DNA of 64,000 nt from positions 1 through 64,000 of the forward strand of contig JAGWLO010000010.1 of NCBI GenBank assembly GCA_028872015.1. The letters run 5' to 3'. The position numbers and the translations under genes were made by a program. Of the stretch, positions 8,452 to 21,395 are shown in pieces. Within the stretch, counting starts at the first letter, position 1. Each line of letters begins with the position of its first letter. The notes below the pieces were generated by a model. That model saw nothing but the letters and a program-made list of their open reading frames with translations, was not told where the DNA came from and made no database searches. This DNA comes from Burkholderiales bacterium. GTDB taxonomy: Bacteria; Pseudomonadota; Gammaproteobacteria; Burkholderiales; Burkholderiaceae_C.

Positions 8452-10584
8452 CTACTGCAGCGGCACGCCGCCGGCCACGCTGCGCAGGTCTTGCGCCACC
8501 CGCCCGTCGTGCAGCGCAATCACGCGGCTGGCCGATGCGATGGTTTCCGGTCGGTGGGCGACAATGATGCGAGTGAGCGCTAACTGTTTGATTGCCTGAT
8601 TGACGCTGCGCTCGCGCTCCACGTCGAGCGAGCTGGTGGCCTCGTCGAGGAGCAGGATCTTCGGCCGCTTGTACAGCGCGCGGGCGAGCAGGATGCGCTG
8701 CTTCTGCCCGCCCGACAGCGCGGTGCCCATGTCGCCGATCAGCGTGTGATAGCCCATCGGCATGGCCTCGATCTCGTCGTGCACGGCGGCCACGCGCGCG
8801 CATTGCTCGGCCCAGGCCAGGTCGGGCGCGGCGCCGAAGAAGCTGATGTTGTCGACGATGGAGCCCGAGAACAGCGGCTCGTCCTGCATCACCACGCCGA
8901 TCTGGTCGCGCCAGGCGCGCAAGCCCACCTTGGCCAGCGGCACCCCACCGGCCAGCACCTCGCCGGCCCCGGGCGCATGCACGCCCAGGATGATCTTGAG
9001 CAGCGTGGTCTTGCCGCAACCCGAAGGCCCGACGATGGCCACCGACTCACCCGCCTCGATCTTCAGGCTCACACCGCGCAGGATCTCGGGCTCGCCGTCG
9101 GCGTAGGCGAAACGCAGGTCGCGCAACTCCAGGCCCGCGCCCACCTCGCGCGCCGGCGTGGCAATGTCGCTCTCGGGCGGTGTCAGCACGATGTCGGCCA
9201 GGCGCTCGCCCTGCAGCCTCAGCATGCCGACCTCCACGCCTTTGTCGATCAGGCCGCTGACGCGGGCGGCGAAGGTCTCGCGGTAGGCGAAGTAGGCGAA
9301 CAGCATGCCGACCGAGAAGCGGCCGTCCAGCACAAGCAAGGCGCCGATCCAGATCACGGCCACCCGCTCCAGGCCGAACAGCAGGCGGTGGCCCAGCGTC
9401 ACGAGCAGGTCGAGCCGCCGCACGTCCACCTGCGCATTCATGGTCTCCACCACCAGGCTGGCGAAGCGCGACTGTCGGTCGCCCTGGGCGTTGAACTGCT
9501 TGATCGCCTGCACGCCCCGCAGTGACTCCAGGAAGTGGCTGGACTGGCGCGCCTCGTAGACCAGCGCGTCCTCGGTGGCCCGCGCCAGCGGCCGGTAGGC
9601 CAGCGCCCGCAGCAGCGCGTACAGGCCCACGGCGGCCAGCGACACCAGGGTGAGCGTGCCGCTGTACAGAGCCATCATCACCAGCGTCAGCAGCATCATC
9701 GCGCCGTCGAGCAGGGCTTCGAGAAAGCTCGTCGTGAGCGTGCGCTGGATCTGCTGCACGGCGCCGAAGCGCGACCAGATGTCGCCGATGTGGCGCTTCT
9801 CGAACCACGCCACCGGCAGCCGCAGCAGGTGCGCGAAGACGCTCACCATCCACTGCAGGTTCAGCGACGACGACAGCACCAGCACCGCCCACGAGCGCGC
9901 CGCCGCGGTGGCCACCTGGATCAGCACCAGCAGCCCGAAGCCCAGGCCCAGCGTGAGCAGCAGGTCGCGATCGGCGCTGACCAGCACATCGTCCACGACC
10001 CATTGCATGAAGAACGGGCTGGCCAGCGCGAACAGCTCGAGCGCCAGCGCCAGCAATAGGATCTGCGCCAGCGAACGCTTCAGGCCGCGCACCGGCCCGA
10101 TCAGCTGGCGCAGGCCGACGCGACGCCGCTCCTGCGCGGGCTGGAAGCTCGGGGCCGGCTGCAGCTCGAGCAGCACGCCGGTGAAATGGCGCGACAGCTC
10201 CGCCGGCCGCACGCGCCGCCGGCCCCGTGCCGGGTCGTGGATGATCGCGTCCCCGCCCTGCCAGCCCACCAGCACCACGAAGTGGTTCAGGTCCCAGTGC
10301 AGGATGCAGGGGCGGGCCACCTGGGCCAGCTCGTCGAGCTCGGCGCGCAACGCACGCGAGTTCAGCTGCATCGACTCGGCCATGCGCACCAGGTCGGCCA
10401 GCGTCACGCCCTTCAGCGAGAGCGCGAAGCGCCGGCGCAAGGCGGCCAGATCGGTGTCCAGGCCATGCGCCGCGGCCACCATCGCCAGGCAGGCCAGGCC
10501 GCATTCGGCGGCCTCGGTCTGCAGCATCACCGGCACCCGGCTGCGCCGGGCCAGGATGCGGGTGCCGTCCCAATCGGCCGTCAC
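8452..10584 (-). CDS. Peptidase-containing ABC exporter for double-glycine peptides (C39 family)
   Basis: 710-residue bacteriocin/GG-peptide exporter. The N-terminal C39 protease domain has the full catalytic set: Gln22 and Cys28 (LQTEAAECGLACLAMV), His101 (NHFVVLVGW) and Asp117 (IIHDPARG). Six membrane helices follow (about 160-450), then an ATPase domain with Walker A GPSGCGKTT, signature LSGGQKQR and Walker B ILLLDEATSSLD. Such proteins cleave the leader after Gly-Gly while exporting the peptide across the inner membrane. The start is GTG at 10584, overlapping the HlyD stop as GTGA, so translation is coupled. The intact protease triad predicts a GG-leader substrate; one is encoded just upstream (11931-12083). 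Confidence 0.95.
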   Translation of the reverse strand: MTADWDGTRILARRSRVPVMLQTEAAECGLACLAMVAAAHGLDTDLAALRRRFALSLKGVTLADLVRMAESMQLNSRALRAELDELAQVARPCILHWDLNHFVVLVGWQGGDAIIHDPARGRRRVRPAELSRHFTGVLLELQPAPSFQPAQERRRVGLRQLIGPVRGLKRSLAQILLLALALELFALASPFFMQWVVDDVLVSADRDLLLTLGLGFGLLVLIQVATAAARSWAVLVLSSSLNLQWMVSVFAHLLRLPVAWFEKRHIGDIWSRFGAVQQIQRTLTTSFLEALLDGAMMLLTLVMMALYSGTLTLVSLAAVGLYALLRALAYRPLARATEDALVYEARQSSHFLESLRGVQAIKQFNAQGDRQSRFASLVVETMNAQVDVRRLDLLVTLGHRLLFGLERVAVIWIGALLVLDGRFSVGMLFAYFAYRETFAARVSGLIDKGVEVGMLRLQGERLADIVLTPPESDIATPAREVGAGLELRDLRFAYADGEPEILRGVSLKIEAGESVAIVGPSGCGKTTLLKIILGVHAPGAGEVLAGGVPLAKVGLRAWRDQIGVVMQDEPLFSGSIVDNISFFGAAPDLAWAEQCARVAAVHDEIEAMPMGYHTLIGDMGTALSGGQKQRILLARALYKRPKILLLDEATSSLDVERERSVNQAIKQLALTRIIVAHRPETIASASRVIALHDGRVAQDLRSVAGGVPLQ

Positions 10585-11834
10585 AGCCGGCTCCGCAATC
10601 CCAGCAGGGGCTCGAACAGCCATTGCACCAGGCGCCGCCGCTCCAGCATCACATCGGCCTGCAGACGCATGCCGGCGACCAGCGCCATGGACGTGCGGGG
10701 CGCCGGGTCGAGTGCCACCGTGATGCGGAACAGCGGCTCGCTGCCGGCTCCCACCGCCGGCAGCGCCAGGGCCGCCAGCTCGTTGGCTGCCAGCGGCGTG
10801 CGCGAGACCCGCAGCACGTGGCCGGGCTGCTGCCCGAACTCCTGGTACGGGAAGGCCTCGTAGCGCAGCCGCACTGTCTGTCCCGGCTGCACGAAACCCA
10901 CCGCACTGGAGGGCGCATACAGCTGCGCCTGCAGCTGTGCCCCGCGCGGCACCAGCGTGGCCAGCGCCGCTGCCGGCGACACGCTCTGGCCGACCTCGGC
11001 CAGCACGGTGCTGACCGTGCCCGGTTGCGGCGCGCGCACCACCACCTGCTGCTGCGCACCCTGCTCGGCGGCGTCGCGTTCGACCTGGGCCAGATCGCGC
11101 TCGAGGCTGCCCACCTGGCTCTCGGTCTGCAGCGGCAGGTCGCGCCGTTGGCCCGCCAGCGTGTCGCGCTCGCGCACCAATGCCGCCCGTTGGCGTGCCA
11201 GTGCCTGCGAAGCCACCTCCAGGCCCAGCACCTCGTCCGACTTGCCCTGCGCCTGCGCGGCCGAGATGAAGTGGTCGGCCTGCAGCGATTGCAGCCGGGC
11301 CAGCGCCTGCTGGGCCAGGGCCAGCCGCTGTTGCTGCAGCCGGGCTTCGGTGTCGAACTGGGCCAGCTCGCCGGCCAAGGAAGCCAGCCGGCGATCGAGC
11401 TCGGCCTGACGCGACTGCGCGAGCGCACGTGCGGCCTGCACGGCCTCGGCCAGGCTGCGCCGGCGGTCGTCCAGGCTCTGGCGCACCTGGGACTGAGCCT
11501 GGCTGCCCAGGGCCGGGCGGTCCAGCGCCAGCACGAACAGCACGTCGCCGGCCTGCACGCCCTGCCCCTCGGCGACCCGGCGTTCGACGACTGTGCCGCT
11601 GACCGAGGGCACCAGACGTATGAGCCCGCGGTCGGGCACGAGCACCCCGGCCACGGTGGCCTTGCGCGTGTAGTGCGCCAGGGTGACGAACGCCACCAGG
11701 GCCAGCACCGCGCACACGGCGCCGCCAGTCAGCCAGCTCAGCGCCAGCGGTCGCACCAGCTGCACCGAACCCAGCCACTGCTGGCGCTGGGCCGCAATCG
11801 CTTCGGGTCGGAACAGCGGGCGTGCGGAAGCCAT
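10581..11834 (-). CDS. HlyD/RaxA-family periplasmic adaptor (membrane fusion protein)
   Basis: 417 residues. A cytoplasmic N-terminus (LFRPEAIAAQRQQWLGSVQL) is followed by one membrane helix (about 33-53), a lipoyl/barrel-sandwich half (GLIRLVPSVSGTVVERRVAEGQGVQAGDVL) and a long coiled-coil hairpin (about 115-230). The second lipoyl half (VVRAPQPGTVSTVLAEVGQSVSP) and a beta-barrel complete it. It links the C39 ABC exporter to an outer-membrane TolC-type channel; none is encoded here. It is oddly placed: its ATG lies only 5 nt after the T-tract of an intrinsic terminator, and no Shine-Dalgarno sequence precedes it. Expression must therefore come by readthrough from the peptide transcript and may be kept low on purpose. 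Confidence 0.93.
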   Translation of the reverse strand: MASARPLFRPEAIAAQRQQWLGSVQLVRPLALSWLTGGAVCAVLALVAFVTLAHYTRKATVAGVLVPDRGLIRLVPSVSGTVVERRVAEGQGVQAGDVLFVLALDRPALGSQAQSQVRQSLDDRRRSLAEAVQAARALAQSRQAELDRRLASLAGELAQFDTEARLQQQRLALAQQALARLQSLQADHFISAAQAQGKSDEVLGLEVASQALARQRAALVRERDTLAGQRRDLPLQTESQVGSLERDLAQVERDAAEQGAQQQVVVRAPQPGTVSTVLAEVGQSVSPAAALATLVPRGAQLQAQLYAPSSAVGFVQPGQTVRLRYEAFPYQEFGQQPGHVLRVSRTPLAANELAALALPAVGAGSEPLFRITVALDPAPRTSMALVAGMRLQADVMLERRRLVQWLFEPLLGLRSRL

Positions 11835-11839
11835 GGACG

Positions 11840-11869
11840 AAAAAACGCGGGCCGCATCAGGCGGCCCGC
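11840..11869 (-). terminator. Intrinsic terminator between GG-peptide gene and HlyD gene
   Basis: Reading the minus strand, a perfect 9-bp GC stem (11861-11869 with 11847-11855) and 5-nt loop are followed by one G and six Ts (11845-11840). It sits 61 nt after the peptide stop and immediately before the HlyD start, so it should make peptide mRNA abundant and exporter mRNA scarce. Confidence 0.85.
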
Positions 11870-11930
11870 ATGCACCTCGGGATCGGAGGGACGGCTCCCG
11901 GGGAGCGCAAAAAGCGAGGTCTGACGTTGA

Positions 11931-12083
11931 TCAGCCGACGCGCGGCAGGGGCTCGGGCACTGACGTGCCGCCACTCACGCGCTTCAGGCTGGCGGCATCC
12001 AGCGGCTGCGGCCGGCGCTGCTCGGCGGCCTGGGCGGTCTTGGTGTTGAAGGACTTGCTGAACAGGGATTGCAGGCGCTGCAT
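11931..12083 (-). CDS. Small double-glycine leader peptide (predicted exported signal or RiPP precursor)
   Basis: A 50-residue ORF starting at ATG with a GGAG ribosome site 7 nt upstream. The product begins MQRLQSLFSKSF and contains LDAASLKRVSGG, a good match to the double-glycine leader consensus (LSxxELxxIxGG). Cleavage after Gly39 would leave an 11-residue core, TSVPEPLPRVG, rich in proline and without Cys, Ser-rich or Tyr modification sites. The gene is flanked downstream by an intrinsic terminator and the HlyD/C39 exporter genes, and upstream by a lux box and a LuxR-type receptor gene. It is therefore the likely substrate of that exporter. No modifying enzyme is encoded nearby, so an unmodified signal peptide or small bacteriocin is the simplest reading. 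Function is inferred only from leader and context. Confidence 0.85.
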   Translation of the reverse strand: MQRLQSLFSKSFNTKTAQAAEQRRPQPLDAASLKRVSGGTSVPEPLPRVG

Positions 12084-12131
12084 GACTCGGCTCCATCCAT
12101 TTCAGGCCCGGGAATCCGAACCCATGGAGAG

Positions 12132-12178
12132 ATTGAATCAGCGGCATCGCGCGCGCGTAACTGTCAAGTCTTACAGGG
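12132..12178 (-). promoter_or_regulatory. lux box and -10 element of the GG-peptide gene
   Basis: On the minus strand, CCCTGTAAGACTTGACAGTT (12178-12159) is an imperfect dyad. It matches the Burkholderia cep box as I remember it (CCCTGTAAGAGTTACCAGTT) at 17 of 20 positions and the Vibrio lux box at 13 of 20. A -10-like TTCAAT (12137-12132) lies at the distance expected when the box is centred about 42 bp upstream of the start of transcription. This predicts an mRNA start near 12126 and a leader of about 42 nt. The arrangement is that of a LuxR-activated class II promoter. Confidence 0.75.
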
Positions 12179-12228
12179 TGCCGCGGCGGGCCGGCATGCT
12201 GCCCGAAGGCGCAGGCCCACGCATCACC

Positions 12229-12942
12229 TCAGTGGATGAGCCCCAGGCGCAACGCCTTCAGGACCGCCTGGTGCTTGTTGTTGCAATTCAGCTTGTGCAT
12301 GGCGTGGTTGATGTGCAGCACCGCCGTGCGCTCGGTGATGCCGAGCACGGCGCCCACCTCCCAGGCGGTCTTGCCCTCCATCGTCCAGCGCAGCACCTCG
12401 AGCTCGCGCGGCGTCAGCGCCGGCTTCTCGGCCTGCTGCGCCTTCGGCACCAGCAGGCGCATCGCGGCCTCCTGCGCATGCACCGCGAACAGCTGCAGGT
12501 CGGCCACGATGCGCTGCAGCTCGGCGGGGTCGGCCGGCAGTGCCTGGTCGCGGTCGACGCCGAGCAGGAAATGCTTGCCCTCGGGCAGATGCAGGGCCAT
12601 CGCCACGCCGGTGCGGTAGCCGTAGCTGGCCTGCTGCTCCCACAGGTCGCCGGCGCCGCTGTCGACGTAGGTGTCCTGATTCCAGATGATGGGCACGCTC
12701 TCCTGCTTGCAGTGACGCAGGATCGGGTCACGACGGCAGTCGGCGGGATCCGAGTAAGGCTCCACGTAGTCCCGCGGCGTGTTGTCGACCGTGATCATTT
12801 CACGCTGGCCCAAGCCACGATCGATCATCGTGACCGCCGACACGGTCTCGAACCCAAGCTGCCGCGTGAAGCGAACCACCTCATCGCGGAACTCATCACG
12901 ATCACGGGCCTGAAGCACCGTCGTGTAGCCACCCGGGAGCAT
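12229..12942 (-). CDS. LuxR-family regulator with acyl-homoserine-lactone-binding domain
   Basis: 237 residues: an autoinducer-binding domain (about 15-160) followed by a GerE-type helix-turn-helix (about 176-234, LTPRELEVLRWTMEGKTAWE, with the recognition helix ending HINHAMHKLN). Alignment by eye to TraR keeps the ligand residues Tyr63 (Y61), Asp72 (D70), Pro73 (P71) and Trp87 (W85), while W57 is replaced by Tyr59. The receptor therefore probably still binds an acyl-homoserine lactone or a close relative. The start has a strong GAGGAG site. No luxI gene is in the window, so it is a solo receptor here or its synthase is elsewhere. Lux-box-like sites lie on both sides of it. Confidence 0.92.
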   Translation of the reverse strand: MLPGGYTTVLQARDRDEFRDEVVRFTRQLGFETVSAVTMIDRGLGQREMITVDNTPRDYVEPYSDPADCRRDPILRHCKQESVPIIWNQDTYVDSGAGDLWEQQASYGYRTGVAMALHLPEGKHFLLGVDRDQALPADPAELQRIVADLQLFAVHAQEAAMRLLVPKAQQAEKPALTPRELEVLRWTMEGKTAWEVGAVLGITERTAVLHINHAMHKLNCNNKHQAVLKALRLGLIH

Positions 12943-12984
12943 TGCTCTCCTCGCCAGATCGACGCCAGCCGTCAGGGCCCAGTA

Positions 12985-13004
12985 CCCTGACAGGATTTAC
13001 AGCT
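12985..13004. promoter_or_regulatory. Second lux-box-like element between luxR and the divergent gene
   Basis: CCCTGACAGGATTTACAGCT matches the box upstream of the peptide gene at 12 of 16 core positions (CTGxCAxGxxTTACAG) and the remembered cep box at 13 of 20. It is centred 44 bp upstream of the divergent ATG at 13039 and 53 bp upstream of luxR, so it could serve either gene or autoregulate luxR. Confidence 0.5.
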
Positions 13005-13038
13005 TTCGCGCGTTCGCCGCTTGGCTAAAGATACGGCC

Positions 13039-13452
13039 ATGCAGAACATCGAAGCAGTGGCCCCTCTTTCCAGCCTCCCCACCACGGCCTGGTCATTGCG
13101 CTCTTGGCCGCCGTTATTGTGGCAGGCTGGCGAGCGCGTGCACGTGCGCTTTCAGCACCTGGGCACGCGCGTGACGCTGGGCATGAGCCCGCCCGGGCCG
13201 GCGGCGGGCCAGACCGTCTGGGCCGCATCGGCGGCCGACGGCGAGGCGGGCATGGCCTGGGATTGGGTGCTGATCGCTCGCGGCGTGGTCGCCATGGCCG
13301 ACCCCATGTCCGTCATCACCAACGTGCGCCTGCTCGGCGAAGAAGGCGAGGTGCTGACAGCCGTCGAGTCGGCCCGCTTCCTCAACGCGTTCGTGCGCGC
13401 CCTGCCCTGGCAGCAGGAGGTGCAGCGCGCCCTGGGCGAGCGCCTGAACTGA
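13039..13452 (+). CDS. Hypothetical protein divergent from luxR
   Basis: 137 residues from ATG at 13039 (an in-frame TTG at 13021 would add six). I do not recognise the family. It is a mixed soluble protein with no signal peptide or membrane segment; notable stretches are WPPLLWQAGERVHVRFQHLG, WDWVLIARGVVAMADPMSVI and a C-terminal helix (FVRALPWQQEVQRALGERLN). No Shine-Dalgarno sequence precedes the ATG. A lux-box-like element centred 44 bp upstream would put the transcript start almost on the ATG, hinting at a leaderless mRNA. Its position suggests a part in the LuxR/peptide system, but this is inference from location only. It is convergent with the NatB-type permease gene. Confidence 0.75.
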   Translation: MQNIEAVAPLSSLPTTAWSLRSWPPLLWQAGERVHVRFQHLGTRVTLGMSPPGPAAGQTVWAASAADGEAGMAWDWVLIARGVVAMADPMSVITNVRLLGEEGEVLTAVESARFLNAFVRALPWQQEVQRALGERLN

Positions 13453-16936: not shown

Positions 16937-17302
16937 TCAGGCCAGCAGTCGCTGCAGCTCGCCGCTGTCGATCAGTCGCTGCAGGTCATCGGCACCACCG
17001 ACCAGCGTGCCCTTGACGAAGACCATCGGCAGCGTCGGCCAGCCGGTCCACATCTTCAGCGCATTGCGCTGCCGCCAGGCGCTGAAATAGCTGCCGTACT
17101 CGAGGTAGGTGTGCGTCACCCCGGCGGCGTCCAGCGCGCGCCTGGCGCGGCGCGGATACGGGTTCTGCGCCATGCCCACCACCACCACCGCGTCGCGCGC
17201 CACGGCGGCCTGCACCTCGCGCAGGGTGCCTTCGTGGTGACGTGCGACCCGCTCGCGCACGGCCGGGTGGATCTGGGATTCGTCGAGTACGGGGCGCGGC
17301 AT
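16937..17302 (-). CDS. Glutaredoxin-fold protein lacking the active-site cysteines
   Basis: 121 residues with the glutaredoxin fold: VVVVGMAQNPYPRRARRALDAAG aligns with the strand-active-site-helix of monothiol and dithiol glutaredoxins, then TLP (residues 90-92, the cis-proline loop) and GGADDLQRL (glutathione-site GG motif). Where CPYC or CGFS is expected there is N47-P48-Y49-P50, so both redox cysteines are absent and no cysteine occurs anywhere in the protein. Glutathione or iron-sulfur binding without thiol chemistry is possible. It starts the minus-strand operon, 5 bp upstream of the S33 hydrolase gene. Confidence 0.8.
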   Translation of the reverse strand: MPRPVLDESQIHPAVRERVARHHEGTLREVQAAVARDAVVVVGMAQNPYPRRARRALDAAGVTHTYLEYGSYFSAWRQRNALKMWTGWPTLPMVFVKGTLVGGADDLQRLIDSGELQRLLA

Positions 17303-17496
17303 CGGTCAACTCTCCTGCGCCTGAATCTACCCCAGCCGAGCCGCGCCGCGATGACACCCCGCATCCGCGGGGTCGCGGCGTAACTATGCACGGCCCCCCG
17401 CGCCGCCGCGCTGCGCCGGGGTGGCACAGCGCCACCACGCGGCCTAGGATGCCCGACGGGCCCGCCTTCCCTCGCATCCTTCCTCGCTGCCCCTTC

Positions 17497-20346
17497 GTGT
17501 CCCTCGCCTCCCTCGCCCGACGCCGGCTGACCGCGTCCGCACCCGCTCGGCTGCTCACCTTGGCGGCGGCTCTGGCCCTGTGCGGCCTGGCCGTGCTGCC
17601 GCGCCCGGCGCTGGCCGACCGCGCCGACCAGGCCGCCCGGCTGTACGACGACGCCCTGACGCGCTACGAGAAGCACGACCTGGCCGGCGCGGCGCTCCAG
17701 CTCAAGAGCGCGCTGCAGATCGACCGCAAGCAATTGCCGGTGCATGTGCTGATGGGCAAGGTGCTGCTCGACAGCGGCCAGCCGGTCGCCGCCGAAGCCG
17801 AATTTGCCCAGGCGCTGGACCTCGGCGTGAACCGGGCCGAAGTCGCGGTGCAGCTGGCGCGCAGCCTGGTGGCGCAGGGGCGCGAGCAGGAGGTGATCGA
17901 CGATGCGCGCTTCGCCCTGGCCGGCCTGCCGGATTCGGCGCTCGCCCCGCTGCTGCTGATCAAGGCCGGCTGCTACGCCGACCTGGGCAACGCGCGCGCC
18001 GCGCTCGACGCCGTGGCGGCGGCGCGCAACGCCGACCCGCGATCGGCCGAGGGCTGGCTGGCCGAGGTGCCGATCCGCATCCGCGCGCGCCAGTGGGCCG
18101 AGGCGCGCAGTGCGCTCGAGCACGCCCGCGCCCTGGCGCCCGGCTCGGCCGCCGTGCATTACACCTTGGGGTCGATCCTGCACGTTTCGGGCGACGAGGC
18201 GGGCGCGCTGGCGGCGTACGACAGGGCGCTGGCGTCCGACCCCGGCTACATCGACGCCCGCGTGGCGCGCGCCGGCATCTACGTCGACATGCGGCGCGAC
18301 GCCGACGCCGCACGCGAGGTCGCCGTGCTCACGCGGGACTCGGCGCTGGAGCCGCGCGGCTGGTACCTGGGCGCCCTGCTGGCCGAGCGAGCCGGCCGCA
18401 CGGCCGCGATGAAGTCCGCGCTGCAGCAGGTGACCGAGCTGCTCGACCCGGTGCCGCTGGGCTACATCCGCTACCGGCCGCAGATGCTGCTGCTGAACGG
18501 CGAGGCTCACTACGGCCTGGGCGAGAACGAAAAGGCGCTGCCCTATTTCGAGGCCTTCCAGCGCGCGCAGCCCGGCAGCCCGGTGGCCAAGGTGCTGGGC
18601 AGCCTGTACCTGGTCAACGGCAATCGCGACCGCGCGGTGGATGTGCTCGAAGACTACCTGCGTGCCGCGCCGAACGACGCGCAGGCGATGGCGCTGCTGG
18701 CGTCGGCCTACATGGCCAAGGGGCGCAACGCCCGCGCGGCCGACCTGATGCAGCAGGCCCTGCAACGCAGCGATGCGGCCGAGCTGTACACCGCCTACGG
18801 CCTGAGCCTGATGCGCTCGGGCCGACGCGCCGACGCCCAGCAGCAGCTCGAATCGGCCTTCCGCAAGGACCCGCGGCAGACCCAGGCCGGCTACGCGCTG
18901 GTCGGCCTGTACCTGCGCGACCACCAGCTCGACAAGGCCCTGGCCGTGGCCGGCACGCTGGTGCGGCAGCAGCCCGCCAATCCGAGCCTGCAGAATCTGC
19001 TGGGCATGGCGCGGGCCAGCCGGCGCGACGTGACCGGCGCCCGCGCCGCGTTCGAGCAGGCGATCGAGCTCGACCCCTCGCTCACGCAGGCCAGCCTGAA
19101 CCTGGCGCGCCTGGAAATGGCGGCCGGCCAGTACGACCGTGCGCAGGGCCTGCTCGACGGCGTGCTGGCCAAGGCGCAGGACAACACCGAGGCGATGGTC
19201 GAGCAGGCGACGCTGGCCGAGCGCCGTGGCCGACCGCGGGATGCGCTGCGCTGGCTCACCAAGGCCTGGGACACCGCCGGCGCCGGCAGCTTGCGCGCCG
19301 GTCTCGCCCTGGTCGACCTGCAACTGCGCCAGGGCCGGCCCGACCAGGCGCTGAAGGTGGCGCAGCAGGTGGCGGCCAGCCGCTCCGACAGCCTGCCGGC
19401 CCTGCTGGCACTGACCCGGGCGCAGCTGGCCAGCCACGATGCCGCCGGGGCCCGCCTCACGCTCAGCGCCGCCACCCGCTACGCTGGCTTCGAAGCCCCG
19501 GTGCAGGTCGAGATCGCGCTGCTGCAGATGGCCGCCGGCAACCTCGGCGGGGCCGCCTACAGCCTGGACAAGGCGCTGTCCTCGCAGCCCGGATTCCTGC
19601 CCGCCCAGGTGCTGTTGACCGAGGTGCAGACGCGGCAGGGCGATTTCGCCGGCGCCGAGCAGCGTGCGCAGCACGTCATCGCCCAGGCCCCGAAGCTGGC
19701 CATCGGCTACAGCCTGCTGGGCGATCTGGCACTGGCGCGCCGGCAGCCCGAGCCGGCCCTGGCCGCCTATCGCAAGGCGCATGCGGTGCAGCCGTCCACC
19801 GAGACCCTTCAGCGCCTGGCGCAAGTCCTGCTGGTGCGCGATCCCACGGCGAGCCTCGCGCTCGTCGAGGCCTGGGTGCGTGTACACCCGGCGGACACCG
19901 TCGCGGCCAACCTGCTGGCTCAGGCTCACGTGCGCAGCGGCCGGTTCGCGGCGGCACGCGAGGTCTACCAGCGCCTGCGTGCGGCGCGGCCGACGGATGC
20001 CGGCGTCCTGAACGACCTGGCCAACGTCCTGCTGGCGCTGAACGACCCGCAGGCCCTCGCCACCGCCGAGCAGGCGCTGGCGGCCGACCCGGGCAACGCC
20101 CTCGTCATCGACACCGCCGGCTGGGCGGCTTTCCGCGCCGGCAAGGTCGATCGGGCGGCCCAGCTGCTGCGCGACGCCCGCCTGCGCGACCCTGGCAACG
20201 GCGCCATCCGGTACCACCTGGCGGCCGTGCTGGCGCAGACCGGGCGCCGATCGGAAGCGCGCGACGAGTTGAGCGCGGCCCTGAAGTCGGGCGCCGAATT
20301 CGATGGCCGGGCAGCCGCCCAGGCGCTGTTGGTGACCCTCGAGTGA
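17497..20346 (+). CDS. TPR-repeat protein of the PEP-CTERM/exosortase system (PrsT-like)
   Basis: 949 residues from GTG 17497. A clean signal peptide (RRRLTASAPAR, hydrophobic core LLTLAAALALCGLAVL, cleavage after PALA) is followed by about twenty tetratricopeptide repeats throughout the mature protein. Length, repeats and an adjacent PEP-CTERM gene match the PrsT family that accompanies exosortase and exopolysaccharide loci. The start is not certain: ATG codons at 17386 and 17449 are in frame. However, a -10-like TAGGAT (17445-17450) overlaps the latter, and only the GTG gives a standard signal peptide. There is no obvious ribosome site. No exosortase gene is in the window. Confidence 0.85.
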   Translation: MSLASLARRRLTASAPARLLTLAAALALCGLAVLPRPALADRADQAARLYDDALTRYEKHDLAGAALQLKSALQIDRKQLPVHVLMGKVLLDSGQPVAAEAEFAQALDLGVNRAEVAVQLARSLVAQGREQEVIDDARFALAGLPDSALAPLLLIKAGCYADLGNARAALDAVAAARNADPRSAEGWLAEVPIRIRARQWAEARSALEHARALAPGSAAVHYTLGSILHVSGDEAGALAAYDRALASDPGYIDARVARAGIYVDMRRDADAAREVAVLTRDSALEPRGWYLGALLAERAGRTAAMKSALQQVTELLDPVPLGYIRYRPQMLLLNGEAHYGLGENEKALPYFEAFQRAQPGSPVAKVLGSLYLVNGNRDRAVDVLEDYLRAAPNDAQAMALLASAYMAKGRNARAADLMQQALQRSDAAELYTAYGLSLMRSGRRADAQQQLESAFRKDPRQTQAGYALVGLYLRDHQLDKALAVAGTLVRQQPANPSLQNLLGMARASRRDVTGARAAFEQAIELDPSLTQASLNLARLEMAAGQYDRAQGLLDGVLAKAQDNTEAMVEQATLAERRGRPRDALRWLTKAWDTAGAGSLRAGLALVDLQLRQGRPDQALKVAQQVAASRSDSLPALLALTRAQLASHDAAGARLTLSAATRYAGFEAPVQVEIALLQMAAGNLGGAAYSLDKALSSQPGFLPAQVLLTEVQTRQGDFAGAEQRAQHVIAQAPKLAIGYSLLGDLALARRQPEPALAAYRKAHAVQPSTETLQRLAQVLLVRDPTASLALVEAWVRVHPADTVAANLLAQAHVRSGRFAAAREVYQRLRAARPTDAGVLNDLANVLLALNDPQALATAEQALAADPGNALVIDTAGWAAFRAGKVDRAAQLLRDARLRDPGNGAIRYHLAAVLAQTGRRSEARDELSAALKSGAEFDGRAAAQALLVTLE

Positions 20347-20349
20347 AGG

Positions 20350-20371
20350 GTCGGCCGGCACGCCGGCCGAC
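20350..20371 (+). terminator. Hairpin just after the TPR gene (probable terminator)
   Basis: GTCGGCCGGC (20350-20359) and GCCGGCCGAC (20362-20371) form a perfect 10-bp GC stem starting 4 nt after the stop. The sequence after it (GCCGGTCGTTCTT) is only moderately T-rich, so termination may be partial. The remaining bases to 20522 hold the promoter of the PEP-CTERM gene, but I see no clear -35/-10 pair. Confidence 0.55.
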
Positions 20372-20522
20372 GCCGGTCGTTCTTACAATTGATCACGAGA
20401 ATGACAGGCGGGTCATCTCAAGTCGTTGTTTTCCGCAAGGTTCCCATGCCTGGCACCGGGCTTGCTGCCCTTGCCACCGAACGCCCGATGGCGGGCAAGC
20501 CCTGAAAGCCGAGGTAGTTCGT

Positions 20523-21395
20523 ATGAACCAATTGTCGAAGTGGATGGGCCGCGCGGCGCTCGTGGCCGGGCTGGGTTTCGCCACGGCGGCGCACGCGACC
20601 TGGACGTTCAAGGGCTCCGGCACGACCGCCTCCAACGGTGACCCGCTGGCCAAGACCAGCTACACCCCGGATGCCGGCTTCTCGACCGACCCGTCGTTGA
20701 CGATCAGCGGGCTCTACGCCCAGAACGGCGCCGGCAACGCGGGCTTCGCCTCCGGTGCCAGCTGGGCCGCCCAGGCGCTGACCTACTACAACCCGGCAGG
20801 GCTGGGCATGTCCTCCGACGGCAACACGGCGCCCAACCACGCGATCGACAACAACGGCAACACCGAAGGCCTGCTGCTGAGTTTTGGCAGCAGCGTGGTG
20901 CTCAGCAGCATCGGCATCGGCTACCTCTCGGGCGACGCCGATGTCTCGGTGTTTCGCTACACCGGCGCCAGCGCGCCGGCGGCTTTGCCCGGCTCGAGCG
21001 TCGCCGGGTTTCTCACCGACGCGCTGGGCTCGGCCAATTCCGGCTGGGACCTGGTGGGCAATTACGCCAACATGGTCCAGGACACGACCAGTCCATACAA
21101 CCTCGTGAATGCCGGCAACAAGGGCTCGAGCTGGTGGCTCATCACGGCCTACAACACGGCGTATGGCGGCGCTAGCGCGAGCCTGACGCAGGGCAACGAC
21201 TACTTCAAGATCTACGCCGTCGCCGGCACCAAGTGCACGGCCGGCGGCACGGCTTGCGGAACCCCGAACACACCGACCGGCGGCAACGTGCCCGAGCCGG
21301 GGTCGCTGGGGCTGGTGCTGGCCGCACTGGCCGGCACCTGGGCCTTCCGGCGTACGCGCGTCGGCGTCGTCGTGCCGTCCTTGGCGGCCGCCTAG
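20523..21395 (+). CDS. PEP-CTERM sorting-domain surface protein
   Basis: 290 residues. It has a signal peptide (MGRAALVAGLGFATAAHA, cleavage before TWTFKG) and a secreted beta-rich middle with many Asn, Gly, Ser and Thr. The C-terminus is a sorting signal: VPEP, a hydrophobic helix (GSLGLVLAALAGTWAF) and basic RRTR. Exosortase would cleave near VPEP and release the protein to the outer surface or matrix. Unusually about 11 further residues (VGVVVPSLAAA) follow the basic cluster, whereas such proteins normally end there. It lies downstream of the PrsT-like gene. Its stop shares the four bases CTAG with the convergent DUF427 gene. Confidence 0.9.
   Translation: MNQLSKWMGRAALVAGLGFATAAHATWTFKGSGTTASNGDPLAKTSYTPDAGFSTDPSLTISGLYAQNGAGNAGFASGASWAAQALTYYNPAGLGMSSDGNTAPNHAIDNNGNTEGLLLSFGSSVVLSSIGIGYLSGDADVSVFRYTGASAPAALPGSSVAGFLTDALGSANSGWDLVGNYANMVQDTTSPYNLVNAGNKGSSWWLITAYNTAYGGASASLTQGNDYFKIYAVAGTKCTAGGTACGTPNTPTGGNVPEPGSLGLVLAALAGTWAFRRTRVGVVVPSLAAA

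What the first reader, a model, noticed from the sequence alone, without database searches (positions are those of the whole stretch)
8452..13004. LuxR-controlled double-glycine peptide with dedicated protease-exporter
An overlooked 50-codon gene (11931-12083) encodes a GG-leader peptide (LDAASLKRVSGG, predicted core TSVPEPLPRVG). It sits between a LuxR-type AHL receptor gene and genes for an HlyD adaptor and a C39-protease ABC exporter with an intact Cys-His-Asp set. A strong lux-box match precedes the peptide gene. The pieces form a plausible circuit in which an AHL-type signal triggers secretion of a proline-rich 11-residue peptide. I know of no described system pairing these parts. The core lacks obvious modification sites and no modifying enzyme is nearby, so a second-tier signal peptide is as likely as a bacteriocin. 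The sequence facts are direct; the circuit and function are inference.
Basis: partly seen in the sequence, partly recalled or inferred. Interest (0 to 1): 0.85.

Follow-up and report, generated by a model that had tools for sequence, protein, structure and literature searches.

The report
Peptide pheromone read by LuxR receptor
A small overlooked gene makes a short peptide that very likely is the signal molecule sensed by the neighbouring LuxR-type receptor, a kind of receptor known for sensing acyl-homoserine lactones, which would be a new class of bacterial cell-to-cell signalling.

Summary
In detail: a 50-codon GG-leader peptide gene (11931-12083, minus strand) lies between luxR and an HlyD/C39 exporter operon, with a lux box before it. 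The AHL interpretation is not supported: no luxI was found in the genome, and the LuxR lacks the conserved pocket Trp57. The arrangement recurs in Rubrivivax and other genera of its family. Picking GG-leader ORFs blind to their cores, 87 of 100 loci have one; 76 of these cores hold P-x-x-x-W and the other 11 an LPRVG-like motif, the window's clade among them. 44 of 122 precursors carry 2-7 copies. Leader and exporter can be missing while luxR, lux box and motif persist (e.g. MQVFTQAQAVALLPRNGW). The motif co-evolves, phylogeny controlled, with the LuxR ligand pocket, and not with the exporter, the RsaM-like protein or, much, the LuxR DNA-binding domain; the residue pairings look steric and charge-complementary. 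The peptide promoter has a fixed lux-box/extended -10 layout, as expected for LuxR activation. Best reading: a self-inducing peptide pheromone circuit whose receptor is a LuxR solo. Binding, secretion and uptake are inferred, not shown; outputs are unknown. No paper describing it was found in the held library.

The parts
11931..12083 (-). precursor peptide gene, 50 codons: GG leader (residues 1-39, 11967-12083) and core TSVPEPLPRVG (11934-11966) ending in the clade motif LPRVG
   Evidence: sister genome L091 has ...GG|ASVPEPLPRVG; homologous small gene in 93 of 100 loci, 87 of 100 when picked blind by leader
12161..12176 (-). lux box CTGTAAGACTTGACAG of the peptide-exporter promoter
   Evidence: equivalent box in 88 of 93 loci
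12132..12140 (-). extended -10 element (TG n TTCAAT; family consensus CTGCTnCAAT 20-29 nt after the box), placing the box where a class II LuxR activator sits
   Evidence: information content up to 2 bits at fixed spacing in 88 loci; window bases read
12229..12942 (-). luxR solo: autoinducer-binding domain + GerE HTH; proposed receptor of the peptide
   Evidence: AlphaFold model, mean pLDDT 87.7, LasR/QscR/SdiA/RhlR-like; co-variation
12987..13002 (-). second lux box (CTGTAAATCCTGTCAG) between luxR and the divergent rsaM-like gene
   Evidence: equivalent box in 85 of 93 loci
13021..13452 (+). divergent RsaM-like gene (DUF4902 relative; start TTG 13021 or ATG 13039)
   Evidence: PF16245 E=4e-5, 23.9 bits, below gathering score 25; five orthologues likewise hit only PF16245, all below cut-off; beside luxR in 40 of 40 genus loci
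10581..11834 (-). HlyD-type periplasmic adaptor
   Evidence: PF13437 2.3e-16
8452..10623 (-). C39-peptidase ABC exporter (start uncertain; in-frame ATG at 10623, from the translation)
   Evidence: PF03412 1.9e-34, PF00664, PF00005; catalytic residues

Best explanation
The locus is a self-contained peptide quorum-sensing (pheromone) circuit in a Gram-negative bacterium. The small gene encodes a precursor whose functional unit is a short motif: xPxxxW in most of the family, LPRVG in this species. The C39/HlyD exporter cuts the precursor after GG and secretes it; further trimming would free the 5-7-residue pheromone. At high density the peptide re-enters cells by an importer that I did not identify. 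It binds in the ligand pocket of the adjacent LuxR solo, where AHLs bind in LuxR's relatives. Peptide-bound LuxR binds lux boxes in front of the peptide-exporter operon (lux box + extended -10, activation) and between luxR and the RsaM-like gene, closing a positive loop, with the RsaM-like protein as likely brake. Shown by sequence: gene content, conservation, motif and repeats, promoter layout, no detected luxI, motif-pocket co-evolution. Inferred: secretion, trimming, uptake, direct binding, the sign of the ligand's effect, density dependence, the brake, outputs.
For: (1) The motif is the constant part. With ORFs picked by leader alone, 76 of 87 cores hold PxxxW and the other 11 an LPR[VIA][GS] motif. 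97 of 125 assigned precursors end exactly in PxxxW. 44 of 122 carry 2-7 exact copies, e.g. GG|LPRGTW SEVQG LPRGTW SETEG LPRGTW ESS LPRGTW. (2) luxR + lux box + motif survive loss of leader and exporter: MQVFTQAQAVALLPRNGW (L344), MQATHQTQTTTLLPRNGW (L333, L337), 7 x GPRGTW without GG (L332), MIATTTRQANTTTELPRAGW (L254). (3) Co-evolution with phylogeny control. LuxR pocket columns (LasR list of PMC9654057 plus W60, D73, Y56, S129 named in PMC10613653, mapped) have mean z 1.82 on a HlyD+C39 tree of 106 loci. The rest of the ligand domain has 0.82, DNA-binding domain 0.33, HlyD 0.04, C39 -0.06, RsaM-like 0.02 (p 1e-6 to 7e-6 against the last three). On the LuxR tree (125 loci) the pocket has 1.89 against 0.29 for the rest of the domain (p=5e-5) (first run). 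(4) Physically sensible pairings: p5=T with Gly69 in 35 of 37, p5=G with Gly69 in only 4 of 63 (W 16, M 14 instead); p3=N with Lys100 in 12 of 14, p3=K/R with uncharged L/I/M/V100 in 86 of 86; p1=G with Phe126 in 11 of 13; p1=A with Cys114 in 23 of 29. Co-changes on the HlyD+C39 tree: p5/69 14 against 3.7 expected, p1/126 7.4 against 0.6. (5) LuxI not found in most carriers; Trp57 replaced. (6) Promoter layout of direct LuxR activation. (7) Precedent for a LuxR homologue answering to a peptide: PipR and Ser-His-Ser (PMC4981722, abstract and discussion read).
Against: No experiment. I noticed no importer or trimming protease in the locus. Exporterless, leaderless members raise the question of how their peptide leaves the cell, or whether it does. 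In the own genome only the two boxes of the locus match the strict pattern. In other genomes the boxes outside the locus are no more frequent than the reversed-pattern control (11 against 37 in 81 genomes; 31 against 41 in 56 genomes; my sums from the tables), so no regulon beyond the locus is evident. 7 of 56 locus-bearing genomes outside the genus do have a LuxI match. Pocket residues P71, W85 and G113 (TraR numbering) are kept in 125 of 125 and D70 in 124, so AHL binding is not excluded by sequence alone. Some strongly co-varying LuxR columns (62, 115, 130) are not in the LasR pocket list, and p4/63 is weaker on the LuxR tree (10.7 against 6.5, P=0.02). The pair groupings were chosen after seeing the table; the pocket-level test was not. 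The window's own clade has lost the Trp, so its motif rests on 10 of the 125 loci. Four fetched loci have this LuxR or a 50-62 % relative, three of them beside an rsaM-like gene, with no motif found (L276, L293, L296, L297).
Confidence: 0.72

Rival explanations
1. The peptide is a LuxR ligand but works inside the producing cell, either as an intracellular co-activator or as an anti-activator whose export relieves LuxR. The circuit then senses export or cell state rather than neighbours.
For: The pocket co-variation shows coupling to LuxR but not its sign or the site of contact. Leaderless, exporterless members exist (L254, L332, L333, L337, L344, L362, L364, L369). No importer was noticed in the locus.
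Against: 107 of 125 loci show a C39 exporter in the fetched stretch, with intact catalytic residues in 83 of 83 aligned. The between-species diversification of the motif looks like pherotype divergence. Multi-copy motifs separated by spacers suggest release of several short peptides.
Confidence: 0.15
2. One reading: an AHL (from neighbours, since no LuxI was found) activates LuxR, which switches on secretion of a peptide acting as bacteriocin or second-tier signal.
For: LuxR fold and four of six conserved pocket residues are kept; lux boxes are canonical; LuxR solos sensing foreign AHLs are known (PMC10134790, passages read).
Against: Trp57 is replaced in 119 of 125. The motif co-varies with the pocket of this LuxR and not with the exporter, which an AHL ligand does not predict. 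The recurring unit is only 5-7 residues, and no constant accessory (immunity-like) gene was seen after the exporter. LuxI was not found in most carriers.
Confidence: 0.1
3. The motif-pocket co-variation is a by-product of linkage: luxR and the peptide gene travel as a cassette by recombination, and the peptide has an unrelated extracellular role.
For: The genes are about 150 bp apart; non-pocket LuxR columns also show some excess on the HlyD+C39 tree (0.82).
Against: On the LuxR's own tree the excess stays in the pocket (1.89) and nearly vanishes elsewhere (0.29 ligand domain, 0.15 DNA-binding domain). Pairings are sterically and electrostatically complementary.
Confidence: 0.03

Closest known systems
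LuxR/LuxI acyl-homoserine-lactone quorum sensing
   Same: receptor family and fold (PF03472+PF00196; model closest to QscR, RhlR, SdiA), lux-box promoters, boxes at luxR itself, RsaM-like neighbour
   Different: no LuxI found; a ribosomally encoded peptide with an adjacent exporter takes the signal's place; Trp57 replaced
LuxR solos answering non-AHL signals (PipR/OryR; PluR, PauR)
   Same: LuxR solo with altered pocket; PipR responds to the tripeptide Ser-His-Ser taken up by an ABC importer (PMC4981722)
   Different: PipR/OryR sense exogenous, plant-related signals and sit beside proline iminopeptidase and transporter genes; PluR and PauR sense small molecules (PMC10134790). Here the peptide is encoded next to the receptor, and its motif co-evolves with it
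RRNPP/Rgg-type peptide pheromone systems of Gram-positive bacteria (recalled)
   Same: short C-terminal peptide freed from a small precursor encoded beside a cytoplasmic receptor-regulator; species-specific variants
   Different: receptor is LuxR-type, not a TPR protein; Gram-negative host; C39/HlyD export; multi-copy precursors
GG-leader pheromones and bacteriocins with C39 (PCAT) exporters
   Same: GG leader, C39 exporter and HlyD adaptor
   Different: the recurring unit is a 5-7-residue, often repeated motif coupled to a LuxR; some members have lost leader and exporter
RaxX/RaxA/RaxB of Xanthomonas (system recalled)
   Same: GG-leader peptide with HlyD + C39 exporter; NCBIfam RaxX model touches residues 3-42 (E=0.0058)
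   Different: far below the model's cut-off (16.9 against 40 bits); no Tyr in the peptide; lux box in front
rsaM divergent to a luxR solo (RsaM review, type 6 topology)
   Same: divergent rsaM-luxR without adjacent luxI in Pelomonas, Kinneretia, Albitalea and others (PMC10710839, section 4 read)
   Different: the review's main text has no word beginning 'peptid'

Membership tests
AHL LuxR/LuxI quorum-sensing pair | LuxI-type synthase in the genome | tested here: not met
   PF00765: 0 in own genome, 3 of 81 in the genus, 7 of 56 locus-bearing genomes of other genera
AHL LuxR/LuxI quorum-sensing pair | six conserved pocket residues W57 Y61 D70 P71 W85 G113 | tested here: not met
   W57 kept in 6 of 125; Y61 position variable; D in 124, P, W and G in 125 of 125
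LuxR solo | autoinducer-binding + GerE domains without cognate LuxI | tested here: met
LuxR solo, PipR/OryR subgroup | W57M/Y61W and adjacent proline iminopeptidase/transporter genes | tested here: not met
   position 59 is Y78 F39 W6 A1 M1; mapped neighbours are the rsaM-like gene, the peptide/exporter operon and, in 27 of 40 genus loci, mnmG; no iminopeptidase search was run
C39 peptidase-containing ABC exporter (PCAT) | N-terminal C39 domain with catalytic Cys/His/Asp, TMD and NBD | tested here: met
RaxX family RiPP (NF038382) | score over curated cut-off; tyrosine in the core (latter recalled) | tested here: not met
   16.9 bits against cut-off 40; no Tyr in P0001
RsaM (PF16245) | score over Pfam gathering cut-off | tested here: inconclusive
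   window 23.9 against 25; five orthologues 14.7-22.1; the only family hit in each; PDB 4o2h E=0.2
Peptide pheromone system (functional class) | secreted mature peptide activates the receptor in a density-dependent way | not testable with these tools
   needs peptidomics and reporter assays
RRNPP peptide quorum sensing | TPR-domain receptor | tested here: not met
   receptor is LuxR-type

The most novel reading that the evidence does not exclude
A new class of Gram-negative quorum sensing: ribosomally encoded penta- to heptapeptide pheromones (consensus xPxxxW), often in tandem copies in one precursor, are read directly in the AHL pocket of a LuxR-type receptor. A residue-by-residue specificity code (p1 with 114/126, p3 with 100/75, p4 with 63, p5 with 69) has diversified across dozens of genera around Rubrivivax, Roseateles, Ideonella, Methylibium, Rhizobacter and Aquabacterium.
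Probability: 0.7. Interest if true: 0.95.

Novelty: categorically new. Interest (0 to 1): 0.92.

Why it matters
LuxR-type receptors are textbook sensors of acyl-homoserine lactones, and many LuxR solos have no known ligand. Here the ligand appears to be written in the genome next to the receptor, so ligand identity and specificity can be predicted from sequence and tested with cheap synthetic peptides. It would bring peptide pheromone logic, known from Gram-positive bacteria, to LuxR signalling. It would also offer orthogonal receptor-peptide pairs for synthetic biology, and could explain rsaM-luxR solos without luxI of the kind already listed in the literature.

Tried and rejected
Homology of the peptide alone: tblastn of the 50-mer over 100 genomes (own included) gave one clear second copy. 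Taken alone this would have suggested no conservation; reading the luxR-hlyD gap locus by locus overturned it.

Bacteriocin with immunity gene: the space between the exporter and mnmG was read by eye in the genus loci (the printed output was cut). No constant gene was seen, and in the window the gap is about 60 bp. No immunity-protein search was run.

RiPP with modifying enzyme: none noticed as constant in the locus; no search with enzyme families was run on the flanks.

AHL made elsewhere in the genome: no LuxI found.

A larger regulon: 42 boxes outside the locus match the strict pattern (11, 31), no more than the reversed-pattern control (37 and 41). I read 29 of them (nine, twenty more); 13 were not read. 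Four precede clearly secreted-looking products: an RHS-repeat protein (L164), a gene with a similar N-terminus (L168, no Pfam hit), collagenase M9 (L409) and thermolysin M4 (L411) (L410 gave no Pfam hit). The rest show no common theme by eye, apart from three of one genus label (L401-L403). Outputs stay open.

Rows dropped or set by hand: of 100 loci the script assigned 94; L258 was removed as false, leaving 93. Seven have no assigned motif (L093, L258, L276, L293, L295, L296, L297; L295 has by eye a leaderless peptide ending LPRTGGW, not counted). Three motifs picked wrongly by the script were set by hand (L096, L280, L284), LPRVGGW was set for L255 and L352, and LPRVSG/LPRVSS were cut to LPRVS. 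Motif assignment searched for PxxxW or LPR[VIA][GS], so P and W in the assigned motifs are partly by construction; one search is the blind check. Of 80 named loci, 35 were duplicates and 45 new; of these, 3 had no credible motif and 10 repeated a known peptide, leaving 32. Loci of G005 and G046 (L173, L174, L176) and G055 (L065) were fetched but not put into the table. In the co-change tests 106 of 125 loci had HlyD+C39 for the tree.
Full report
What is there. On the minus strand of the window, from 13.0 to 8.5 kb, lie luxR (12229-12942), a 50-codon GG-leader peptide gene (11931-12083), an HlyD adaptor (10581-11834) and a C39 ABC exporter (8452 to about 10623). A divergent gene (13021-13452) is a distant relative of DUF4902/RsaM: PF16245 E=4e-5, slightly below the curated cut-off. 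Five orthologues hit only that family, also below cut-off. Lux boxes lie at 12161-12176 (peptide) and 12987-13002 (luxR/rsaM). A single box is not above chance in 64 kb; its conservation is what counts.

Conservation. The genome's nearest named relatives are Rubrivivax. LuxR orthologues of at least 68 % identity occur in 42 of 81 genomes of the genus; 49 of 81 genomes have a C39 exporter match at E<=1e-100. The rsaM-like gene is beside luxR in 40 of 40 genus loci examined (39 fetched, plus the window), and mnmG follows in the fetched stretch in 27 of 40; in seven others there are about 2-6 kb after the exporter without mnmG. In the wider family, LuxR relatives at E<=1e-55 occur in 102 of 399 genomes and 38 of 141 genera, paralogues included. 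In an order-level sample, 3 of 399 genomes match at E<=1e-50: the own genome, one of the same family, and one of another family at 40 % identity. Records with close LuxR relatives are named Roseateles, Paucibacter, Mitsuaria, Ideonella, Methylibium, Rhizobacter, Aquabacterium, Aquincola, Piscinibacter, Leptothrix and others.

The peptide. By direct search the 50-mer has one clear relative among 99 other genomes. Reading the luxR-hlyD gap of each locus shows a related small gene in 93 of 100 fetched loci, and 32 more distinct ones among named records. The motif is short, terminal or repeated: LPRGGW, LPKGTW, SPKGGW, APKNTW, GPNGGW, LPVKGW, APTKGW, SPFHRW and so on. My assignment looked for the motif, so I repeated it blind: choosing ORFs by the GG leader alone gives one in 87 of 100 loci, and 76 of those 87 cores hold PxxxW (63 at the very end), the other 11 LPR[VIA][GS], none neither. 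Of 125 assigned motifs 115 end in Trp; the ten exceptions are the window's own clade (LPRVG, LPRVS, LPRVGGL, LPRIGGL, LPRAGGL). Among other short ORFs of 93 of these loci, 48 of about 9,500 end in PxxxW. 44 of 122 precursors carry 2-7 exact copies.

Leader and exporter are dispensable, the motif is not. 18 of 125 loci show no C39 in the fetched stretch. In three of these the stretch may simply be too short (L110 and L327 end close to luxR; L240 shows an hlyD relative at its very end). In a group of records named Aquabacterium or only Burkholderiales/Burkholderiaceae, and in L254 (Rubrivivax pictus, by matching contig length with L348), the GG leader is gone too. Yet a lux box and a tiny ORF with the motif remain: MQVFTQAQAVALLPRNGW, MQATHQTQTTTLLPRNGW, MIATTTRQANTTTELPRAGW, and seven tandem GPRGTW. 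Of 12 genomes without an exporter beside luxR, 10 have some match to the exporter elsewhere at E<=1e-60 (G032's is the orthologue; G131's lacks the C39 part) and two have none.

Promoters. A box is found in 88 of 93 peptide promoters and 85 of 93 luxR promoters. In the peptide promoters an extended -10-like element, CTGCTnCAAT, sits 20-29 nt after the box at fixed spacing. This puts the box near -43 of the expected start, the position of a class II LuxR activator (the class II reading is established knowledge). The window fits this (TG at 12140-12139, TTCAAT at 12137-12132). The luxR promoter shows no such fixed -10.

The receptor. PF00765 (LuxI) is not found in the own genome, in 78 of 81 genomes of the genus (own included; several are incomplete), or in 49 of 56 locus-bearing genomes of other genera. 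Of the six residues conserved in AHL receptors (listed in PMC10134790, passage read), Trp57 is replaced by Tyr/Phe in 117 of 125 LuxRs, and the Tyr61 position varies. D70 stays in 124, P71, W85 and G113 in 125. An AlphaFold model (mean pLDDT 87.7) matches QscR, RhlR, SdiA and the LasR ligand domain.

Who senses the peptide? I asked which proteins of the locus change together with the motif, counting co-changes on a tree against a null that spreads each column's changes by branch rate. With the exporter tree (106 loci), 19 variable pocket columns taken from a published LasR list have mean z 1.82. The list is the PMC9654057 table, read, its doubled 'Leu38' taken as Leu39 and Leu40, plus four residues named in PMC10613653; it was mapped. 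The other ligand-domain columns have 0.82, DNA-binding domain 0.33, HlyD 0.04, C39 -0.06 and the RsaM-like protein 0.02 (p between 1e-6 and 7e-6 against the last three, 0.0007 against the DNA-binding domain, 0.005 against the rest of the ligand domain). With the LuxR tree (125 loci) the pocket keeps 1.89 and the rest falls to 0.29 and 0.15, the RsaM-like protein to -0.31. A first run on 82 loci, with a pocket list from memory, gave pocket 1.23, other ligand domain 0.61, DNA-binding domain 0.19 and the others 0.03-0.09. The leading pairs make physical sense: Thr at position 5 goes with Gly69 (35 of 37), Gly at position 5 mostly with other residues (Gly69 in 4 of 63). Asn at position 3 goes with Lys100 (12 of 14) and Lys/Arg with aliphatic or Met 100 (86 of 86). 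Gly at position 1 goes with Phe126 (11 of 13), Ala at position 1 with Cys114 (23 of 29). On the exporter tree p5/69 co-changed 14 times against 3.7 expected and p1/126 7.4 against 0.6; the weakest, p4/63 on the LuxR tree, 10.7 against 6.5 (P=0.02). These groupings were chosen after seeing the table. I take this as good evidence that the peptide is the ligand of this LuxR.

Function. In the own genome only the locus's two boxes match the strict pattern. In other genomes, boxes outside the locus are no more frequent than the reversed-pattern control (31 against 41 in 56 genomes; 11 against 37 in 81), so as a class they may be chance. I read 29 of 42. Four precede secreted-looking products: an RHS-repeat protein and a gene of similar N-terminus, a collagenase and a thermolysin-type protease; this is a lead, no more. 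Five of 60 fetched family loci carry clusters of 3-5 luxR genes, which could be receptors for foreign peptides (inference).

Known or new. The pairing was not found in eight literature searches aimed at it (a ninth was for the LasR pocket); preprints and most subscription papers are not held. Closest: PipR, a LuxR homologue that responds to Ser-His-Ser through an ABC importer (PMC4981722, abstract and discussion read), and rsaM-luxR solo pairs without luxI (PMC10710839, section 4 read; no word beginning 'peptid' in its text). In reviews of LuxR solos and LuxR partners and a meeting report (PMC10134790, PMC13043044, PMC13422126; passages read) I saw no ribosomal peptide pheromone. I file it as categorically new as a class (LuxR-type receptor with a gene-encoded peptide pheromone), while each half has precedents and all evidence is computational.

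Noticed in passing
L238, L239, L240, L241, L242: Clusters of 3-5 luxR paralogues beside the peptide locus in five family genomes; possible receptors for foreign peptides.
   Followed up: no
L409, L411, L164, L168: Lux boxes of the same type precede genes for a collagenase (M9), a thermolysin-type protease (M4), an RHS-repeat protein and a gene with a similar N-terminus in other genomes; candidate outputs, but such boxes as a class are no more frequent than the control pattern.
   Followed up: partly
L332, L333, L337, L344, L362, L364, L369, L254: Leaderless tiny peptides with the xPxxxW motif and no exporter in the fetched stretch (one with seven tandem copies).
   Followed up: partly
L401, L402, L403: A lux-type box recurs about 350-640 bp before a homoserine-kinase-like gene (named by eye) in three genomes with one genus label; meaning unknown.
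   Followed up: no
window 17242-21395: A large TPR-repeat protein gene (prsT-like, by eye) and a protein ending in a PEP-CTERM-like tail (VPEPGSLGLVLAALAGTWAFRR) lie nearby.
   Followed up: no
L093, L094: In G032 luxR has no peptide or exporter beside it, and hlyD-C39 lie at the end of another contig: rearrangement or assembly break.
   Followed up: no
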